Source: an uncultured Acetatifactor sp. (lineage in GTDB: Bacteria > Bacillota > Clostridia > Lachnospirales > Lachnospiraceae). Taken from it: 64,000 bases of DNA. The notes below the pieces were generated by a model that did no database searches, was not told where the DNA came from, and saw only the letters and a program-made list of their open reading frames with translations. Location of the stretch: contig CANPXL010000006.1 in the NCBI GenBank assembly GCA_947586055.1, positions 52,668-116,667 of the forward strand, given 5' to 3'. A program made the position numbers and the translations under genes. Shown here piece after piece: positions 46,464-53,096 of this stretch; within the stretch, counting starts at the first letter, position 1; every line of letters begins with the position of its first letter.

Positions 46464-47342
46464 ATGAAGACGCTGTACGTCACGGATCTGGACGGCACCT
46501 TTCTGAACAGAGAAGGCAGGCTGAGCGGGTTCAGCCGCCGGACCGTTCAGTCTCTTGTAAGCTCCGGTCTGCTTTTTACCTTCGCTACCGCCAGAAGCCT
46601 GTCCTCCGCTTCCAGGGCCATGGAAGGACTCGATCTTCGGACGCCTGTCATTACCTACAACGGGGTTTTTCTCATAAGACCGGACACCGGGGAGATTCTG
46701 GAGAAAAACTGTTTTACGCCAATGGAAGCGAAAAGGATTCAGGATCTCATGGAAAAGCTGGATATTTCTCCGCTGGTGTATTCTATCATTGACGGCAGAG
46801 AACGGCTTTCATGGGACGTTACCCGGCAAAACCCGGGCAGGGAAAATTATCTGAGCCGCAGGAAGGGGGACAGGAGGCTTCGCCCTCTTATGGACGGCAG
46901 GGGACTGTATGACGGGGAAATCTTTTATTTTCTTGGGGTCGGGAAACGGGATGAACTCCTGCCGCTGCAGGAAGCGGTAAAGAACGACAACCGCTGTATC
47001 AGTTTTCTGCAGAAGGAACTTTACCAGCCGGAATATTTCTGCGAGATCATGCCCGCAGAGGCTACAAAAGCCAATGCCATCCGGCGGCTTAAAGCACTTC
47101 TGGGCTGCGGCCGCGTCATCACCTTCGGCGACGCCGTAAACGACATTCCCATGTTTCGGGTCTCCGACGAGTGTTATGCCGTAGAAAACGCGGTGGAAGA
47201 ATTAAAGGCGGCCGCGACAGGGGTGATCGCTTCCAATGAACAGGACGGGGTGGCAAAATGGCTGCTGGAAAACGGGGTCATTGACGGGAACGCGGAAATC
47301 GGAAGGAAATCAGGCTTCCGGGGCGGAACGCGGGACATTTGA
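46464..47342 (+). CDS. HAD-IIB (Cof-type) phosphatase
   Basis: 292-residue haloacid-dehalogenase-superfamily hydrolase of the Cof type, usually a sugar-phosphate or cofactor-phosphate phosphatase. Motif I VTDLDGTFLN, motif II FATARS, and motif III-IV KANAIRRLKALL then ITFGDAVNDIPMF are in place, and the cap lies between. Starts behind ATGGAGGAAT. Its 3' side runs into the left inverted repeat of the invertible element, which also forms a terminator-like hairpin. Confidence 0.9.
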   Translation: MKTLYVTDLDGTFLNREGRLSGFSRRTVQSLVSSGLLFTFATARSLSSASRAMEGLDLRTPVITYNGVFLIRPDTGEILEKNCFTPMEAKRIQDLMEKLDISPLVYSIIDGRERLSWDVTRQNPGRENYLSRRKGDRRLRPLMDGRGLYDGEIFYFLGVGKRDELLPLQEAVKNDNRCISFLQKELYQPEYFCEIMPAEATKANAIRRLKALLGCGRVITFGDAVNDIPMFRVSDECYAVENAVEELKAAATGVIASNEQDGVAKWLLENGVIDGNAEIGRKSGFRGGTRDI

Positions 47343-47420
47343 CTTGGGGCGTTTGGTTCGCAGCCTGTGGAAAAAACAAAAAGATGAATAAATTACCCCA
47401 AAACGGGGAAATAAAAATAA

Positions 47421-47453
47421 CACAACATTTTTCTGAGAAATGTTGTGTTATTT
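47421..47453. repeat. Left inverted repeat (IR-L), also a hairpin
   Basis: 33-bp repeat, exact reverse complement of 48272-48304. With its outer flank the whole forms a 16-bp perfect hairpin (47415-47430 with 47438-47453). Read leftwards (minus strand) it is followed by TTTTTATTT, a good terminator; read rightwards it is followed by GTGTTTT and may end HAD-gene transcription. Confidence 0.93.
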
Positions 47454-47474
47454 GTGTTTTCCTTGCTTACACTT

Positions 47475-47504
47475 ATTATATCGGACGCATTTTCTTTTTC
47501 TTAA
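47475..47504 (-). promoter_or_regulatory. Outward promoter of the invertible element
   Basis: On the minus strand TTAAGA (47499-47504), an 18-nt spacer and TATAAT (47475-47480), pointing left, out of the element into IR-L. In the present orientation it points away from csrA. After inversion it would lie about 20 nt inside the right repeat and point at csrA. Confidence 0.6.
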
Positions 47505-47592
47505 CCCCTTAAAACAGATTTTTTAATACGCTTTTTGTCAGGTCTTTTTATATGGCGCTTCCTGCAAAATTTACAGGGGCGTCGCGGGGATT

Positions 47593-48171
47593 CTACAGCT
47601 GAATCTGGCGGAACACGTTGTCCCTGTCGTCCTGGTCGATGCACAGGTAGCGGGTGGTGACCTGATAGGAAGAATGGTTGTAAATATCCATCAGCACCGC
47701 GGGCGGAACACCCTGTTTCCAGGCGTGATAGCCGAATGTTTTGCGCAGGGAATGGCAGCCGATATGGTCGCAGAGTCCGCAGCCGGAGGCGGCTTTGCGT
47801 ATGATGCGGTAGGCCTGATGCCGGTCAAGGGTCTTTTTGCTCCGCGCGCTTTCAAAGATGGGATCTTCGGGAGCAGGCTGTTTCACCGCCATCCAGTTTA
47901 TCAGCGCGTCCTGCAGAATCGCGTTCAGAACGATCCGGGTGTGCTTTCCCGTCTTTTGTTCCGTCAGTTCCACATGTGTTTTCAGCTTCTGGTTGGAAAA
48001 GTCATATACGGCGTTCCATTTCATGTTCAGGATATCCGTGATCCGCAGCGCGGTGTTAAGCCCCATCAGGATCAGCAGATGATTCCGCTGGCTCACCGGA
48101 GTAATGTCCGGATAGAAATTTTCTAACTTCTTTAAGTCTTCTTTTGTTCGGATTGGTTGTGTTACGCTCAT
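47593..48171 (-). CDS. Small tyrosine-type site-specific recombinase
   Basis: 192 residues, only the catalytic domain, as in FimB/FimE-type inversion enzymes. The active-site set is complete: Arg43 (ALR), Lys73 (EQKTGK), His140 and Arg143 (CHSLRKT), His166 (YNHSS), nucleophile Tyr175 (TTRYL). It lies wholly inside the 33-bp inverted repeats and would itself flip. AGAAGGAG precedes the start at 48171. Probable job: inversion of this segment, switching csrA and perhaps flagellin. Confidence 0.93.
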   Translation of the reverse strand: MSVTQPIRTKEDLKKLENFYPDITPVSQRNHLLILMGLNTALRITDILNMKWNAVYDFSNQKLKTHVELTEQKTGKHTRIVLNAILQDALINWMAVKQPAPEDPIFESARSKKTLDRHQAYRIIRKAASGCGLCDHIGCHSLRKTFGYHAWKQGVPPAVLMDIYNHSSYQVTTRYLCIDQDDRDNVFRQIQL

Positions 48172-48271
48172 GTTTTGTCTCCTTCTGCCTGTCGGCCTTT
48201 GTATGGAGGGCTTTGTCCCCCTGAAATCTCATTTTACGAAAAAAAGCGGCGGTTCCCCCTTTTCTCCGAAA

Positions 48272-48304
48272 AAATAACACAACATTTCTCAGAAAAATGT
48301 TGTG
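48272..48304. repeat. Right inverted repeat (IR-R)
   Basis: 33-bp partner of IR-L. Its outside flank is CGGCAGGATTC, without the T-rich run that stands outside IR-L, so transcription leaving the element on this side would not meet a complete terminator. Confidence 0.93.
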
Positions 48305-48349
48305 CGGCAGGATTCAAGGCAGAAGCCGGAGAAAACAGGGAGGTAAAAA

Positions 48350-48625
48350 ATGCTGAATCTATCCGTAAGGCCGGGCGAGTATCTCATGGTGGGGGAAAAC
48401 GTAAAGATCGTCTTCGTAGGCGGAACCGGAAACAACATCCACCTGATGATAGACGCGCCGCGAGAGGTCAACATCGTCCGCAGCGCGGTGGCGGAGAAAG
48501 CGGGAGCCGTTCCGCCCTCTCCCTATAAGAAAAAGACGCCGGTGTCCAACGCGGCGCAGCAGGAGATCATCCGCATTATCCGGGAGGATAAGAAGAAAGC
48601 GGGGGCGGCGAAGGCCGCAAGGTAA
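48350..48625 (+). CDS. csrA: CsrA-family carbon storage regulator/flagellin translational repressor
   Basis: 91 residues: the CsrA beta-sheet core MLNLSVRPGEYLMVGENVKI, GGTGNNIHLMIDAPREVNIVR, followed by a longer basic tail (about residues 55-91). CsrA binds GGA motifs in mRNA leaders; in Firmicutes it represses flagellin (hag) translation and is counteracted by FliW. Divergent: Arg6 of the canonical SRKPGE is shifted (SVRPGE). CAGGGAGG stands upstream. The gene lies between the inversion repeat and flagellin, with no recognisable promoter in the 45 nt before it. Confidence 0.88.
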   Translation: MLNLSVRPGEYLMVGENVKIVFVGGTGNNIHLMIDAPREVNIVRSAVAEKAGAVPPSPYKKKTPVSNAAQQEIIRIIREDKKKAGAAKAAR

Positions 48626-48750
48626 AAGGGCGGAAGAGCCCTTCCAAAACGGAATATGGGGCTGCTATCCTGGGGGCGGTCCTTTATTCATAAAAAACTG
48701 AATAGCAACCAAAAAACAAAGCACGGGCCAAAGGCCCAAACGCGCCGAAC

Positions 48751-48777
48751 GGATTCGGAGCGGAACGTAAAGGGAGG
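48751..48777 (+). promoter_or_regulatory. Clustered GGA motifs at the flagellin ribosome site
   Basis: Four GGA triplets at 48751, 48757, 48762 and 48773, the last inside the Shine-Dalgarno sequence AGGGAGG. This spacing and position match CsrA-binding sites on hag mRNA. A GGGCC-AAA-GGCCC hairpin stands just upstream. Confidence 0.6.
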
Positions 48778-48783
48778 TACACT

Positions 48784-50268
48784 ATGGTAGTACAACACAA
48801 CTTAACAGCAATGAACTCTAACAGAATGCTGGGTCTGACCAGTTCTTCACAGGCAAAGTCCACCGAGAAGCTTTCTTCCGGTTACAAGATCAACCGTGCG
48901 GCTGACGACGCAGCAGGCCTGTCCATCAGTGAGAAGATGCGCAAGCAGATCAGAGGTCTGACACAGGCATCCGCAAACGCACAGGACGGCATCAGCGCAG
49001 TACAGACCGCTGAGGGCGCGCTGAACGAAGTTCAGGATATGCTGCAGAGAATGAACGAGCTGGCAGTGAAGGCAGCAAACGGCACCAACTCCGAGAATGA
49101 CCGCAGCTACATCCAGAACGAGATCGACCAGCTGACCACTGAGATTGACCGTGTGGCAGAGACCACCAAGTTCAACGAGACTTATCTGCTGAAGGGCGAT
49201 AAGGATCTGGAGAAGGGGTATACCTACAGCTACAAGAATTTTGCAGCGGATGCTGAACAGGATGGAACAGCAACCTTCAGCACAGATGACAGCACAAAGC
49301 TGACAGCGACGCTGGCCGATATCACTGCTCCTACAGAGGCAGGTCTGCAGGATGAGATGAACGAGGTGCTGATGGCATTCCGTGACCAAGGAGTAAAGTT
49401 GACGGCAGAGGTTGTTTCAGACGGAGCTGGCGGTGGAAAGGTGTCCTATAGCCTTGAACTGCTCGGCGCAGCGGCAGAGAAGTTTGATGTCAATAGGGTA
49501 AAAGACTCGGATACAAGTTTTGAAATCAAGGACAAGGAAGGCAAGCTCTTGGCGACCGTTACGGGCAAAGGAGCAACCTTGACGGCCGATAAGGATCACA
49601 TTGGAGATAAAGCCTCTGCAACGGTGATTGCAACCGATATTCAGGCGGTTCAGTCTACCGCTGAGCAGGCAAAGTACTATGACAGAGACGGCAACGCCAT
49701 TTCCGCAAATGCCTTGAGCAACTATTTTTCGGCTTCAACAGCTGATGATGGTACAGTTTCCGTTGCTGCAAAGACAGGTGCTCCCCAGCTTTATGATGCG
49801 GTAGGCAACAAAGTGGACGCTGAGCCGGACAACATTGCAGCCCTTCAGGATCTGACTGCCGCCCTCACGGTATCCCTCCATGTAGGCGCAGACGCTACCA
49901 GCAACAACCAGATCACCATGAACATCGACACCATGAGCGCAAAGGGACTTGGCGTGAATGGTCTGAAGGTGGACGGTGTGGATGACACCAACGCATTAAG
50001 CGCGATCGACACCATCAAGGAAGCCATCCAGAAGGTCTCCACACAGCGTTCCGCACTCGGTGCAGTTCAGAACAGACTGGAGCATACCATCAACAACCTG
50101 GATAACGTCGTTGAGAACACCACCTCCGCAGAGAGCCAGATCCGTGATACCGATATGGCTACTGAGATGGTGAAGTACTCCAACAACAACATCCTGTCCC
50201 AGGCAGGCCAGGCAATGCTGGCTCAGGCAAATCAGGCGAACCAGGGCGTTCTGTCCTTACTTGGCTGA
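48784..50268 (+). CDS. Flagellin
   Basis: 494-residue flagellar filament protein. The N-terminal D0/D1 region (to about 140) has [13 protein letters not shown] and the [16 protein letters not shown] segment; the C-terminal D1/D0 region has [16 protein letters not shown] and ends in [23 protein letters not shown]. The middle (about 145-395) is a variable domain. The TLR5-contact stretch reads LQRMNELAV rather than LQRVRELAV, a change from Arg to Asn. No sigma-28-type promoter was recognised upstream, so transcription may depend on csrA read-through or another promoter. Codon use is more biased than in neighbours, as expected for an abundant protein. Confidence 0.97.
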
Positions 50269-51703: not shown

Positions 51704-51742
51704 AGTGACAAAAATGTCACTTTATAGTATAATAATGTCACT
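51704..51742 (+). promoter_or_regulatory. Promoter and palindromic operator of the AlbA_2-type gene
   Basis: GTGACA (51705-51710), 17-nt spacer, TATAAT (51728-51733). The -35 box lies in a perfect palindrome AGTGACAAAAATGTCACT (51704-51721), and a further half-site TGTCACT stands at 51736-51742 after the -10. This suggests repression or autoregulation. Confidence 0.7.
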
Positions 51743-51761
51743 TAGAAAAAGAGGTAAACAG

Positions 51762-53096
51762 ATGAATTTGGGGAAAGAAACGGAAACGCTTGAATTTAAA
51801 AAAACAACCGGAGAAATGAAAGAGGCAATGATCTCTATATCCTCCATTTTAAATAAACATGGGGTGGGAACGCTTTATTTTGGCGTGAAGCCAAACGGCG
51901 ATGTCTGTGGTCAAGATGTTTCAGAGTCATCGCTTCGTGATGTTTCAAGGACTGTTTATGAAAATATAAGACCACAGATATATCCTGTTGTTGAAGAAGT
52001 AGAGATGTGTGGAAAACATCTGATCAAGGTTGAATTTAATGGAGATAATATGCCATATTCCGCGGCAGGACGTTATTATTTAAGAACGGCGGACGAAGAC
52101 CGTGAGGTTACACCGGAAGAACTAAAGAATTTTTTTGTATCAAATGAGTATAAAGAAAAATGGGAGAAAACTGCATCTTCAGCCACTGTAAAACAGATTG
52201 ACAGGACTGCCGTAAAATCCTTTTGGCAAAAAGCGGTTTTAGCGGGACGTATGCCGGATGGAAGATATACCTGTCCGATAATTCTCAGAAGGTATGGCTT
52301 GCTTAATGGAAATAACCTAAACCATGCCGGAGAATATTTATTTGGCAATACTCAGCCGGTTACGCTAAAAGCTGCTGTATTCGCCACAGATGAAAAGCTT
52401 ACATTTATTGATATGAAGCATTTTGAGGACAATATTTATAATTTACTTAATATTGCCGAAAATTATGTCCTTCAGAATATGAAATGGAGGAGTGAAATAA
52501 TCGGAACCCAAAGAGAAGAGATTCCGGAAATTCCGGTTGCAGTGATCAGAGAGGTTCTTTCCAACAGCTTTGCTCACGCAGTTTATAATGAACACACAAA
52601 TCATGAGATATGCATCCATCCGGGAATGATAACATTTTATAGTCCCGGGGAATATGCGAGCAATTACAAACCTGAGGAATACATAAAAGGAAATAAAGAG
52701 TCTGCAATACGGAATGCCATAATATCCAAAATCTTATATTTAAATAAATCTATCGAACAATTTGGCAGTGGATTTAAAAGAGTGGACAGTTTGTGCAGAG
52801 ATGCAGAAATTCGATATTCCTACGAGATGCTGGAACATGGATTTAAATTCATCCTATACAGACCTCAGTATAAAAGTGACATTTACAATGTCACTTTAGA
52901 TGTCACTTTGAATGGAACAGAAATGTCGGTGCTTGCTATTTTAAGACAAAAACCAGATTCTTCAAGGAATGAAATTGCAGAAAAAATATCAAAAACTGTC
53001 AGGACAGTGCAGAGAGCGTTGGATTCATTGAGAGAAAAGGGATATATCCGCAGGGTCGGATCGAAGCGTGAAGCCAAATGGGAAGTGCTGAAATAA
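51762..53096 (+). CDS. AlbA_2 (Schlafen-like) ATP-binding transcriptional regulator
   Basis: 444 residues. The N-terminal AlbA_2/Slfn-type domain begins ETETLEFKKT and has GTLYFGVKPNGDVCG; a HATPase_c_4-type region contains IREVLSNSFAHAVY and GSGFKRVDSL; the C-terminus is a winged-helix with SRNEIAEKISKTVRTVQRALDSLREKG. Probably a DNA-binding regulator, and it may control its own promoter. The linker before the wing has NVTLDVTL, whose DNA repeats the operator half-site. Start ATG 51762 follows AAAAAGAGG. It lies directly before the Wadjet operon. Confidence 0.8.
   Translation: MNLGKETETLEFKKTTGEMKEAMISISSILNKHGVGTLYFGVKPNGDVCGQDVSESSLRDVSRTVYENIRPQIYPVVEEVEMCGKHLIKVEFNGDNMPYSAAGRYYLRTADEDREVTPEELKNFFVSNEYKEKWEKTASSATVKQIDRTAVKSFWQKAVLAGRMPDGRYTCPIILRRYGLLNGNNLNHAGEYLFGNTQPVTLKAAVFATDEKLTFIDMKHFEDNIYNLLNIAENYVLQNMKWRSEIIGTQREEIPEIPVAVIREVLSNSFAHAVYNEHTNHEICIHPGMITFYSPGEYASNYKPEEYIKGNKESAIRNAIISKILYLNKSIEQFGSGFKRVDSLCRDAEIRYSYEMLEHGFKFILYRPQYKSDIYNVTLDVTLNGTEMSVLAILRQKPDSSRNEIAEKISKTVRTVQRALDSLREKGYIRRVGSKREAKWEVLK

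What the first reader, a model, noticed from the sequence alone, without database searches (positions are those of the whole stretch)
47421..48304. Self-contained inversion switch directly upstream of csrA and flagellin
Seen: perfect 33-bp inverted repeats, each with the arm-core-arm layout of a tyrosine-recombinase site (10-bp arms, asymmetric 7-bp core), enclosing a recombinase gene with all catalytic residues. Known: tyrosine recombinases flip promoters of surface genes in gut Firmicutes. Inferred: inversion switches a CsrA-flagellin unit, so motility may be phase variable through a translational repressor. I do not know a described case of this arrangement.
Basis: partly seen in the sequence, partly recalled or inferred. 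Interest (0 to 1): 0.93.

Follow-up and report, generated by a model that had tools for sequence, protein, structure and literature searches.

The report
Self-flipping flagellin promoter in gut bacteria
Some gut bacteria of the family Lachnospiraceae carry a short DNA segment, bounded by matching inverted repeats and holding its own recombinase gene and a predicted flagellar promoter, just upstream of a flagellin operon; flipping the segment would likely turn that flagellin on or off, much like the classic Salmonella flagellar switch but with an unrelated enzyme.

Summary
In detail: perfect 33-bp inverted repeats (47421-47453, 48272-48304), each a 10-7-10 site, enclose a small tyrosine recombinase. 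In this draft genome the exact site arms occur only here and in a second, paralogous copy. The assembly is therefore read as OFF, and inversion would point the promoter at the operon.

The unit is a family: of the best 80 relatives kept (of 148), 70 lie beside csrA. The two sites share an identical inverted 7-bp core in 52 of 53 loci, with 33 different cores; shuffled pairs give at most 9 of 53. Promoter direction in the 70: 60 OFF, 5 ON, 2 ambiguous, 3 uncalled. Of 69 csrA-flagellin stretches, 0 hold their own sigma28 site. Flagellin leaders carry a GGA-loop hairpin of CsrA type (61 of 71).

In two relatives the segment sits between divergent flagellins and would choose between them. Closest known: Salmonella hin-fljBA and Oscillospiraceae hin-csrA-tldR (PMC13418256). 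Not shown: flipping within one strain; what CsrA does.

The parts
47421..47453 (.). Left inverted repeat (distal site); recombination site 47421-47447 = 10-bp arm, 7-bp core TTCTGAG, 10-bp arm
48272..48304 (.). Right inverted repeat (csrA-proximal site); recombination site 48278-48304
47593..48171 (-). Small tyrosine recombinase, 192 aa, of catalytic-domain size
   Evidence: PF00589 1.8e-22; conserved residues; AlphaFold mean pLDDT 86, best PDB fold matches XerA, a phage integrase, XerH
47478..47504 (-). Sigma28-like promoter TTAA-N16-CCGATAT, pointing left, away from csrA (OFF). Inversion would place -35 at 48221-48224 and -10 at 48241-48247 on the plus strand
   Evidence: one match in the 64-kb window, 0.01 expected; same element in relatives; coordinates after inversion. 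The same bases also read as a sigma70-like promoter, 10 of 12
48350..48625 (+). csrA-like gene (CsrA*), 91 aa
   Evidence: PF02599 3.3e-18; 24% identical to the genome's canonical CsrA in the alignment
48745..48758 (+). Leader hairpin with CGGA in its loop, a CsrA-type RNA site (predicted)
   Evidence: conserved in relatives with several pair types per stem position
48771..48777 (+). Shine-Dalgarno-like sequence of the flagellin gene (AGGGAGG)
   Evidence: sequence
48784..50268 (+). Flagellin, 494 aa
   Evidence: PF00669 5.3e-43 and PF00700 2.9e-27
47396..47453 (-). Terminator-like hairpins across and just outside the left repeat, which might stop the outward OFF transcript
   Evidence: pattern scan only: 7 terminator-like sites in 47300-48800 against 2.4 in shuffles

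Best explanation
This is very likely a self-contained inversion switch: two inverted recombinase sites enclose a tyrosine recombinase gene and a sigma28-like promoter that here points away from the neighbouring csrA-flagellin operon, and the recombinase is predicted to flip the segment so that the promoter would drive that operon. Shown directly: the sites, the shared asymmetric core, the gene, the promoter-like sequence and its direction, conservation of this anatomy across many species, and opposite orientations in different species. Inferred: that the enzyme is active in this strain, that the promoter is used by sigma28, and that ON cells make CsrA* plus the linked flagellin. Further inferred, less sure: CsrA* binds GGA hairpins in flagellin leaders and so holds down other flagellins, as FljA does in Salmonella. 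In relatives where the segment lies between two divergent flagellins, the same flip would choose one flagellin or the other.
For: Perfect repeats found only at this locus and its paralogue. Core test with sites found by their arms alone: 7-bp cores identical as inverted repeats in 52 of 53 loci, 0 of 53 in direct orientation, 33 distinct cores, permuted pairs mean 2.3 and at most 9 of 53. Mismatches between the two sites at the nine central positions are 14,0,0,0,1,0,0,0,6, so exactly seven bases are held identical and the next base on either side is free. Promoter scoring 10 or more of 11 downstream of the recombinase, on its strand, in 58 of 72 loci (the window, its C3 copy and 70 others), against 1 of 72 on the other strand of that stretch, 0 of 72 upstream on the same strand, 5 of 72 upstream on the other strand, and 0 of 72 in one base shuffle each. 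Those 5 are among the 14 that failed downstream and form a second group (L066, L067, L072, L076, L082) with the promoter on the other side of the recombinase, facing the other way: the promoter is kept, the gene direction is not. The -10 ends 13-26 bp from the distal repeat in 72 of 74 matches (one locus can give two). Both orientations exist: 60 OFF and 5 ON of 70 csrA-linked loci; recombinases 85-86% identical occur in opposite states (L031 vs L048, L076 vs L067). Of 69 csrA-flagellin stretches, 0 have a sigma28 site. In a second, partly overlapping sample csrA-linked flagellins have one within 450 nt in 0 of 12, unlinked ones in 12 of 21: 10 of 10 that are over 80% identical to the window's (two of these, L158 and L161, sit beside a recombinase segment whose promoter faces them) and 2 of 11 at 48-56%. 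Leader hairpin in 61 of 71 vs shuffle mean 2.65, maximum 6.
Against: No two assemblies of one strain in opposite orientation were available, and flanks beyond the unit are not syntenic between the ON and OFF relatives compared, so orientation is read against csrA only. OFF dominates (60 of 70; and all 14 csrA-linked loci among 26 read from a family draw, 11 with a promoter call, overlapping the first set), which could mean rare flipping or counter-selection. One of the five ON loci (L076) shows no flagellin match and a short 59-aa csrA frame. The window promoter's -35 is TTAA, not TAAA, and the site also fits sigma70. CsrA* lies far below the CsrA equivalog cut-off (37.9 vs 73 bits). Close unlinked flagellins have a GGA-loop hairpin too (9 of 10), so selective repression of the others is not explained. 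One locus (L026) has a 6 of 7 core, and in L030 only one site was found. Some repeats found by the general finder are short (7 of 61 score under 18), and no shuffle control was run for that finder.
Confidence: 0.87

Rival explanations
1. The recombinase segment is a solitary integrative element, or relic of one, that happens to sit beside flagellin genes; the repeats are its ends and it does not switch expression.
For: Relatives of the recombinase are common on plasmids, mostly of Firmicutes genera (1861 of 72,556 records), and in phages (178 of 50,697), at under 60% identity; PHROGs calls it integrase.
Against: The two sites around the recombinase are inverted by core in 53 of 53 loci, which gives inversion, not excision; extra same-core direct copies exist only before further flagellins in L033, L045 and L079. 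The unit keeps the same neighbour, csrA, in 70 of the 80 loci kept and a fixed promoter near the distal site.
Confidence: 0.04
2. The switch works but mainly controls CsrA* as a global translational regulator; flagellin is only one of several outputs.
For: csrA is the first gene of the operon in 70 of 80 loci, and one unit (L076) has csrA without a flagellin match; CsrA proteins are global regulators in other bacteria (recalled).
Against: Some units have flagellin with no csrA match (L045, L062, L186, L187; L187 with one site only), 69 of 70 csrA-linked loci have a flagellin after csrA, and the conserved GGA hairpins found here are in flagellin leaders. Other targets were not searched.
Confidence: 0.15
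3. The switch is locked OFF in most species: a silent flagellin reserve, with repeat identity kept by gene conversion rather than by flipping.
For: 60 of 70 loci OFF against 5 ON; 14 of 14 in the OFF layout in the family draw.
Against: Only the 7-bp core is kept identical; the base next to it differs between the two sites in 18 of 53 loci, which fits strand exchange across the core rather than conversion of the whole site. Five loci are ON.
Confidence: 0.1

Closest known systems
Salmonella hin-fljBA flagellar phase switch (PMC9368917, passages seen)
   Same: Recombinase gene and flagellin-operon promoter lie inside one invertible segment; the operon holds a flagellin and a regulator that acts on the other flagellin.
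   Different: Hin is a serine recombinase working with Fis and an enhancer; here a tyrosine recombinase with unrelated sites. The regulator is CsrA-like and precedes the flagellin, unlike FljA after FljB.
Oscillospiraceae hin / csrA-tldR-fliC loci (PMC13418256, section 11 read whole; other passages)
   Same: csrA linked to a flagellin system; an invertible FliA (sigma28) promoter upstream; their CsrA, expressed in E. coli, was enriched on a fliC 5' UTR with a stem-loop motif in RIP-seq.
   Different: Serine recombinase next to a ~120-bp inversion, plus the RNA-guided repressor TldR. Here a tyrosine recombinase is usually inside a segment of about 720-1240 bp, and this genome has no PF01385 (TnpB-type) match.
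Clostridioides difficile flagellar switch with RecV (PMC5386303, passages seen)
   Same: Tyrosine recombinase inverts DNA upstream of flagellar genes in a gut member of the Clostridia.
   Different: 154-bp element with 21-bp imperfect repeats upstream of the early flgB operon, RecV encoded elsewhere and serving more than one switch with unlike repeats, and control after transcription starts; not a flagellin-specific promoter.
fim switch (FimB/FimE) of E. coli (recalled; NCBIfam PRK09871 and PRK09870 'tyrosine-type DNA invertase' hits)
   Same: Tyrosine recombinase of about 200 aa; invertible promoter.
   Different: Recombinases outside the segment; fimbriae, not flagella; scores 44.8 and 32.0 bits against cut-offs of 222 and 221.

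Membership tests
Tyrosine recombinase | PF00589 domain with R, K, HxxR, H and Tyr catalytic residues | tested here: met
   (residue roles recalled); fold match to XerA, XerH, Cre, lambda Int
Invertible promoter (inverton) | Inverted repeats with matching asymmetric core around a promoter | tested here: met
   promoter by sequence only
Invertible promoter (inverton) | Both orientations in one strain or population | not testable with these tools
   no reads; opposite orientations seen only between species
Salmonella hin-fljBA type | Serine recombinase Hin | tested here: not met
   enzyme is a tyrosine recombinase
Salmonella hin-fljBA type | Recombinase and sigma28 promoter inside the segment, driving a flagellin operon | tested here: met
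   sequence level only
Salmonella hin-fljBA type | Linked regulator represses the other flagellin | not testable with these tools
   the C2 flagellin leader has a GGA-loop hairpin; repression itself untested
Oscillospiraceae hin-csrA-tldR | hin serine recombinase upstream | tested here: not met
   the recombinase beside csrA is of tyrosine type and the next gene is an HAD hydrolase; no separate serine-recombinase search of the genome was made
Oscillospiraceae hin-csrA-tldR | TldR (TnpB-derived) gene in the unit | tested here: not met
   csrA and flagellin are adjacent (158 nt); no PF01385 match in this genome. Other TldR profiles were not tried
CsrA | PF02599 domain | tested here: met
   3.3e-18, 65.8 bits vs 27
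CsrA | NCBIfam CsrA equivalog score | tested here: not met
   37.9 vs 73 and 33.7 vs 70.1 bits: a divergent paralogue
C. difficile RecV flagellar switch | Switch before the early flgB operon, recombinase in trans | tested here: not met
   segment lies before csrA-flagellin and holds its own recombinase

The most novel reading that the evidence does not exclude
Lachnospiraceae have re-invented the Salmonella flagellar phase switch from unrelated parts: recombinase, sigma28 promoter, a dedicated CsrA that would act as the FljA-like translational repressor, and a flagellin travel as one module, are duplicated within genomes with non-crossing cores, and in some species have grown into either/or or three-way flagellin selectors that would diversify the dominant flagellin antigens of the gut.
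Probability: 0.5. Interest if true: 0.88.

Novelty: new variant of a known kind. Interest (0 to 1): 0.76.

Why it matters
Gut-microbiota flagellins draw raised antibody responses in Crohn's disease (abstract start of PMC11285207 in the listing); that Lachnospiraceae flagellins are leading ones is recalled. A stochastic DNA switch on them would mean that flagellin load and type vary between cells of one strain, invisibly to gene-content surveys, and the orientation can be counted in metagenome reads that already exist. It is also a likely convergent solution to Salmonella's switch with a different enzyme class. The 33 distinct cores with exact within-locus matches are a ready set of candidate non-crossing recombination sites.

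Tried and rejected
Flank synteny between ON and OFF relatives, to show the flip on a fixed background: in 12 comparisons no shared flanks beyond the unit, apart from csrA itself (L067/L076) and a weak 26-30% protein match (L039/L085).

Rfam on 47300-48900: only matches below gathering score, all over the palindromic left repeat. PDB by sequence: none. Viral contigs: no relative.

Repeats as mere terminators: rejected as a full account, since cores match between sites but differ between loci; a terminator side-role stays possible.

Mobile element: see rivals. Longer segments in four relatives (about 1.8-2.5 kb) carry extra ORFs, some resembling Rpn/PD-(D/E)XK-type proteins by eye (that name is recalled, no family search was run on them); taken as later insertions.

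The sigma28 check on the C26 flagellin gave nothing (start not found) and was done (one weak-35 match at -199).

Literature: eight searches listed no description of a tyrosine-recombinase csrA-flagellin switch; they cover only CC-licensed PMC papers, and some lists were cut to the best rows. The 2019 Science paper on invertible promoters (doi 10.1126/science.aau5238) was not held, so a prior listing there or in its tables cannot be excluded. PMC3720852 (passages) gives the Butyrivibrio sigma28 consensus TAAA-N16-17-MCGATAa used as yardstick. PMC11892184 (passages) has no word beginning 'flagel' in its main text.

Full report
What was checked. The repeats at 47421-47453 and 48272-48304 are perfect over 33 bp with 818 nt between them. 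Each holds a site with 10-bp palindromic arms and the asymmetric core TTCTGAG. In the 2.8-Mb draft genome the arms occur without mismatch only at this pair and one more pair on contig C3; one further place has 3 mismatches, and the reversed control pattern has two places at up to 3 mismatches. The C3 pair encloses a 67%-identical recombinase and precedes another csrA-flagellin unit in the same layout, with a different core (CTGTCTG), so the two switches should not recombine with each other (non-crossing is inferred).

The enzyme. The 192-aa protein is a tyrosine recombinase (PF00589, 1.8e-22) with R43, K73, K76, H140, R143, H166 and Y175 invariant in 35 aligned sequences. The AlphaFold model (mean pLDDT 86) matches the catalytic parts of larger recombinases; the best hits are XerA, a phage integrase and XerH. 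It has no sequence match among solved structures and lies far below the NCBIfam cut-offs for Xer and DNA-invertase models.

Just inside the left repeat, on the minus strand, lies TTAA-N16-CCGATAT (47504-47478), the only match to TTAAG-N14-16-CCGATAT in the window (0.01 expected). It points left, away from csrA. A Butyrivibrio sigma28 consensus TAAA-N16-17-MCGATAa is given in PMC3720852 (passages). Across 72 csrA-linked loci (the window, its C3 copy and 70 from GTDB genomes) the stretch downstream of the recombinase scores 10 or 11 of 11 in 58; the controls give 1 of 72 (its other strand), 0 of 72 (upstream, same strand), 5 of 72 (upstream, other strand: the second group below) and 0 of 72 (one base shuffle each). 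In many relatives it begins TAAAGT and ends CCGATATA; the window's own copy has a poorer -35 and can also be read as a sigma70-like site. The -10 ends 13-26 bp from the distal repeat in 72 of 74 matches.

A family, with a core signature. A scan of one genome per species found 148 relatives and kept the best 80. Of these 80, 70 have csrA within 1.2 kb of the recombinase and 10 do not. A general finder found inverted repeats around the recombinase in 61 of the 70, seven of them with scores under 18; no shuffle control was run for it. The site scans add pairs in eight of the other nine, six around the recombinase (L026, L042, L050, L053, L061, L073) and two next to it (L024, L043), leaving L030 with one site. 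When sites are located by their arms alone, with the centre ignored, both sites score 15 of 18 or better in 53 of 82 loci scanned (80 plus the window and C3; the other 29 were not counted). In 52 of these 53 the 7-bp cores are identical as inverted repeats and in one (L026) 6 of 7; none are identical in direct orientation. There are 33 different cores, and shuffled pairings reach at most 9 of 53 (10,000 shuffles; loci are related, and cores that relatives share count in the shuffles too). Position by position the two sites differ in 14,0,0,0,1,0,0,0,6 of 53 loci across the nine central bases: seven bases are locked and their neighbours are not. This is what repeated strand exchange across a 7-bp overlap would leave, and it is the strongest evidence that the segments invert over evolutionary time.

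Orientation. Read by promoter direction, the 70 csrA-linked loci are 60 OFF, 5 ON (L031, L038, L039, L076, L082), 2 with matches on both strands (L015, L073) and 3 without a match at threshold; at 9 of 11 these three also have a promoter facing away from csrA (L018, L024, L043; L024 has one facing csrA too, outside its site pair). Where no repeat had been found by the finder, the stretch searched was up to 2.6 kb, so those calls are weaker. Among 26 loci read from a family draw, 14 had csrA, all in the OFF layout, 11 with a promoter at threshold (overlaps the first set). A second group (L066, L067, L072, L076, L082) has sites of another type and the promoter upstream of the recombinase, facing the other way; it also shows both states. 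Recombinases 85-86% identical are found in opposite states (L031/L048, L076/L067). L076 has no flagellin match and a 59-aa csrA frame. Outer flanks were not shared in the 12 comparisons made, so this is between-species evidence. No within-strain test was possible.

The operon depends on the segment's promoter. Of 69 stretches from csrA start to flagellin start, 0 contain a sigma28 site; the window and C3 have none either. In a second, partly overlapping sample of 33 flagellins (29 congener loci plus 4 from this genome) csrA-linked ones have 0 of 12 within 450 nt. Unlinked ones have 12 of 21: 10 of 10 that are more than 80% identical to the window's flagellin, and 2 of 11 at 48-56%. Two of those ten (L158, L161) lie beside a recombinase segment, and the promoter that faces them is the segment's own; the other eight have no recombinase match in the stretch read. 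The C2 flagellin of this genome has a sigma28-like site at -227. In the OFF state the outward transcript would meet hairpins with T-runs (pattern match only).

CsrA and leader RNA. CsrA* is a divergent CsrA (24% identical to the canonical copy beside a fliW-like gene on C36). It keeps R44; residue 6 is V instead of the canonical R, and residue 7 is R here but S in many relatives. In 61 of 71 linked flagellin leaders (60 dinucleotide shuffles: mean 2.65, maximum 6) a hairpin has GGA in its loop, in 55 of the 61 starting 38-50 nt before the start codon; in the 62 leaders with the loop motif there are 49 distinct stems, and the loop is ACGGAT in 39 of them and AAGGAT in 8. Stem positions 3 to 6 show several pair types, paired in 48, 46, 47 and 40 of 49 (where a leader had several such loops the best-paired one was taken, and relatedness was not corrected for). 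Such hairpins are the known CsrA target shape (recalled; and a fliC 5' UTR stem-loop enriched with a linked CsrA in PMC13418256). Close unlinked flagellins have a GGA-loop hairpin too, 9 of 10. So CsrA* could act on its own and on other flagellins; which it prefers is open.

Variants that extend the idea. L045 and L186 have the segment between two divergent flagellins without a csrA match, so either orientation would face a flagellin; L045 has a third same-core site before a third flagellin. L187 has a flagellin on one side and only one site at threshold. L033 and L079 have an extra same-core site, in direct orientation, before a second csrA-flagellin pair. In L024 and L043 the recombinase lies outside a smaller promoter segment.

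Spread. In the genus 43 of 138 genomes, this one included, have a relative at E 1e-40 or better; in a draw from the family 24 of 299, this one included, at 1e-30. A human faecal scaffold filed as Bacteriophage sp. (MT837916) carries recombinase, csrA and flagellin in order. A protein search with CsrA* returned 21 proteins, all with a CsrA domain and none with a given name.

Relation to known systems. It works like Salmonella hin-fljBA but with a different class of recombinase and a CsrA-type regulator. The nearest published arrangement found is hin upstream of csrA-tldR loci in Oscillospiraceae with inversions of a FliA promoter (PMC13418256). No paper listed in eight searches describes the tyrosine-recombinase version, with the limits stated under Tried and rejected.

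Verdict. Real, widespread and very probably functional as an inversion switch (0.87). The role of CsrA* and within-strain flipping remain to be shown. PMC9368917 describes FljA as acting on transcription; I recall it as post-transcriptional, and the comparison here does not depend on that.

Noticed in passing
G000 C3, locus L125 (also L003, L007): Second complete switch in the same genome: recombinase 67% identical, CsrA* identical over the 52 residues compared, different core; DNA about 80% identical over 1.8 kb. Also OFF.
   Followed up: yes
L045, L186: Recombinase segment between two divergent flagellins with no csrA match: a possible either/or flagellin selector; L045 has a third same-core site before a third flagellin.
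   Followed up: partly
L189 (18 kb) and L188: Array of many flagellins with three separate switches of different cores in one genome; several other flagellins there have sigma28-like sites just upstream.
   Followed up: partly
L024 737-1186; L043 5511-5727: Recombinase outside a smaller promoter segment; in this OFF state the promoter points towards the recombinase gene, which might raise recombinase and favour flipping.
   Followed up: no
L042, L050, L053, L073: Segments of about 1.8-2.5 kb with extra ORFs between recombinase and promoter; the promoter stays at the distal site.
   Followed up: partly
70 csrA-linked loci: Strong bias to OFF (60) over ON (5) in assemblies. Cause unknown: intrinsic bias, selection in the gut, or assembly preference.
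   Followed up: no
L192 (MT837916.1): Human faecal scaffold labelled Bacteriophage sp. is very likely a bacterial fragment with the recombinase-csrA-flagellin unit.
   Followed up: yes
window 51705-53096: Schlafen/AlbA_2-domain protein with winged-helix C-terminus downstream of the flagellin.
   Followed up: no
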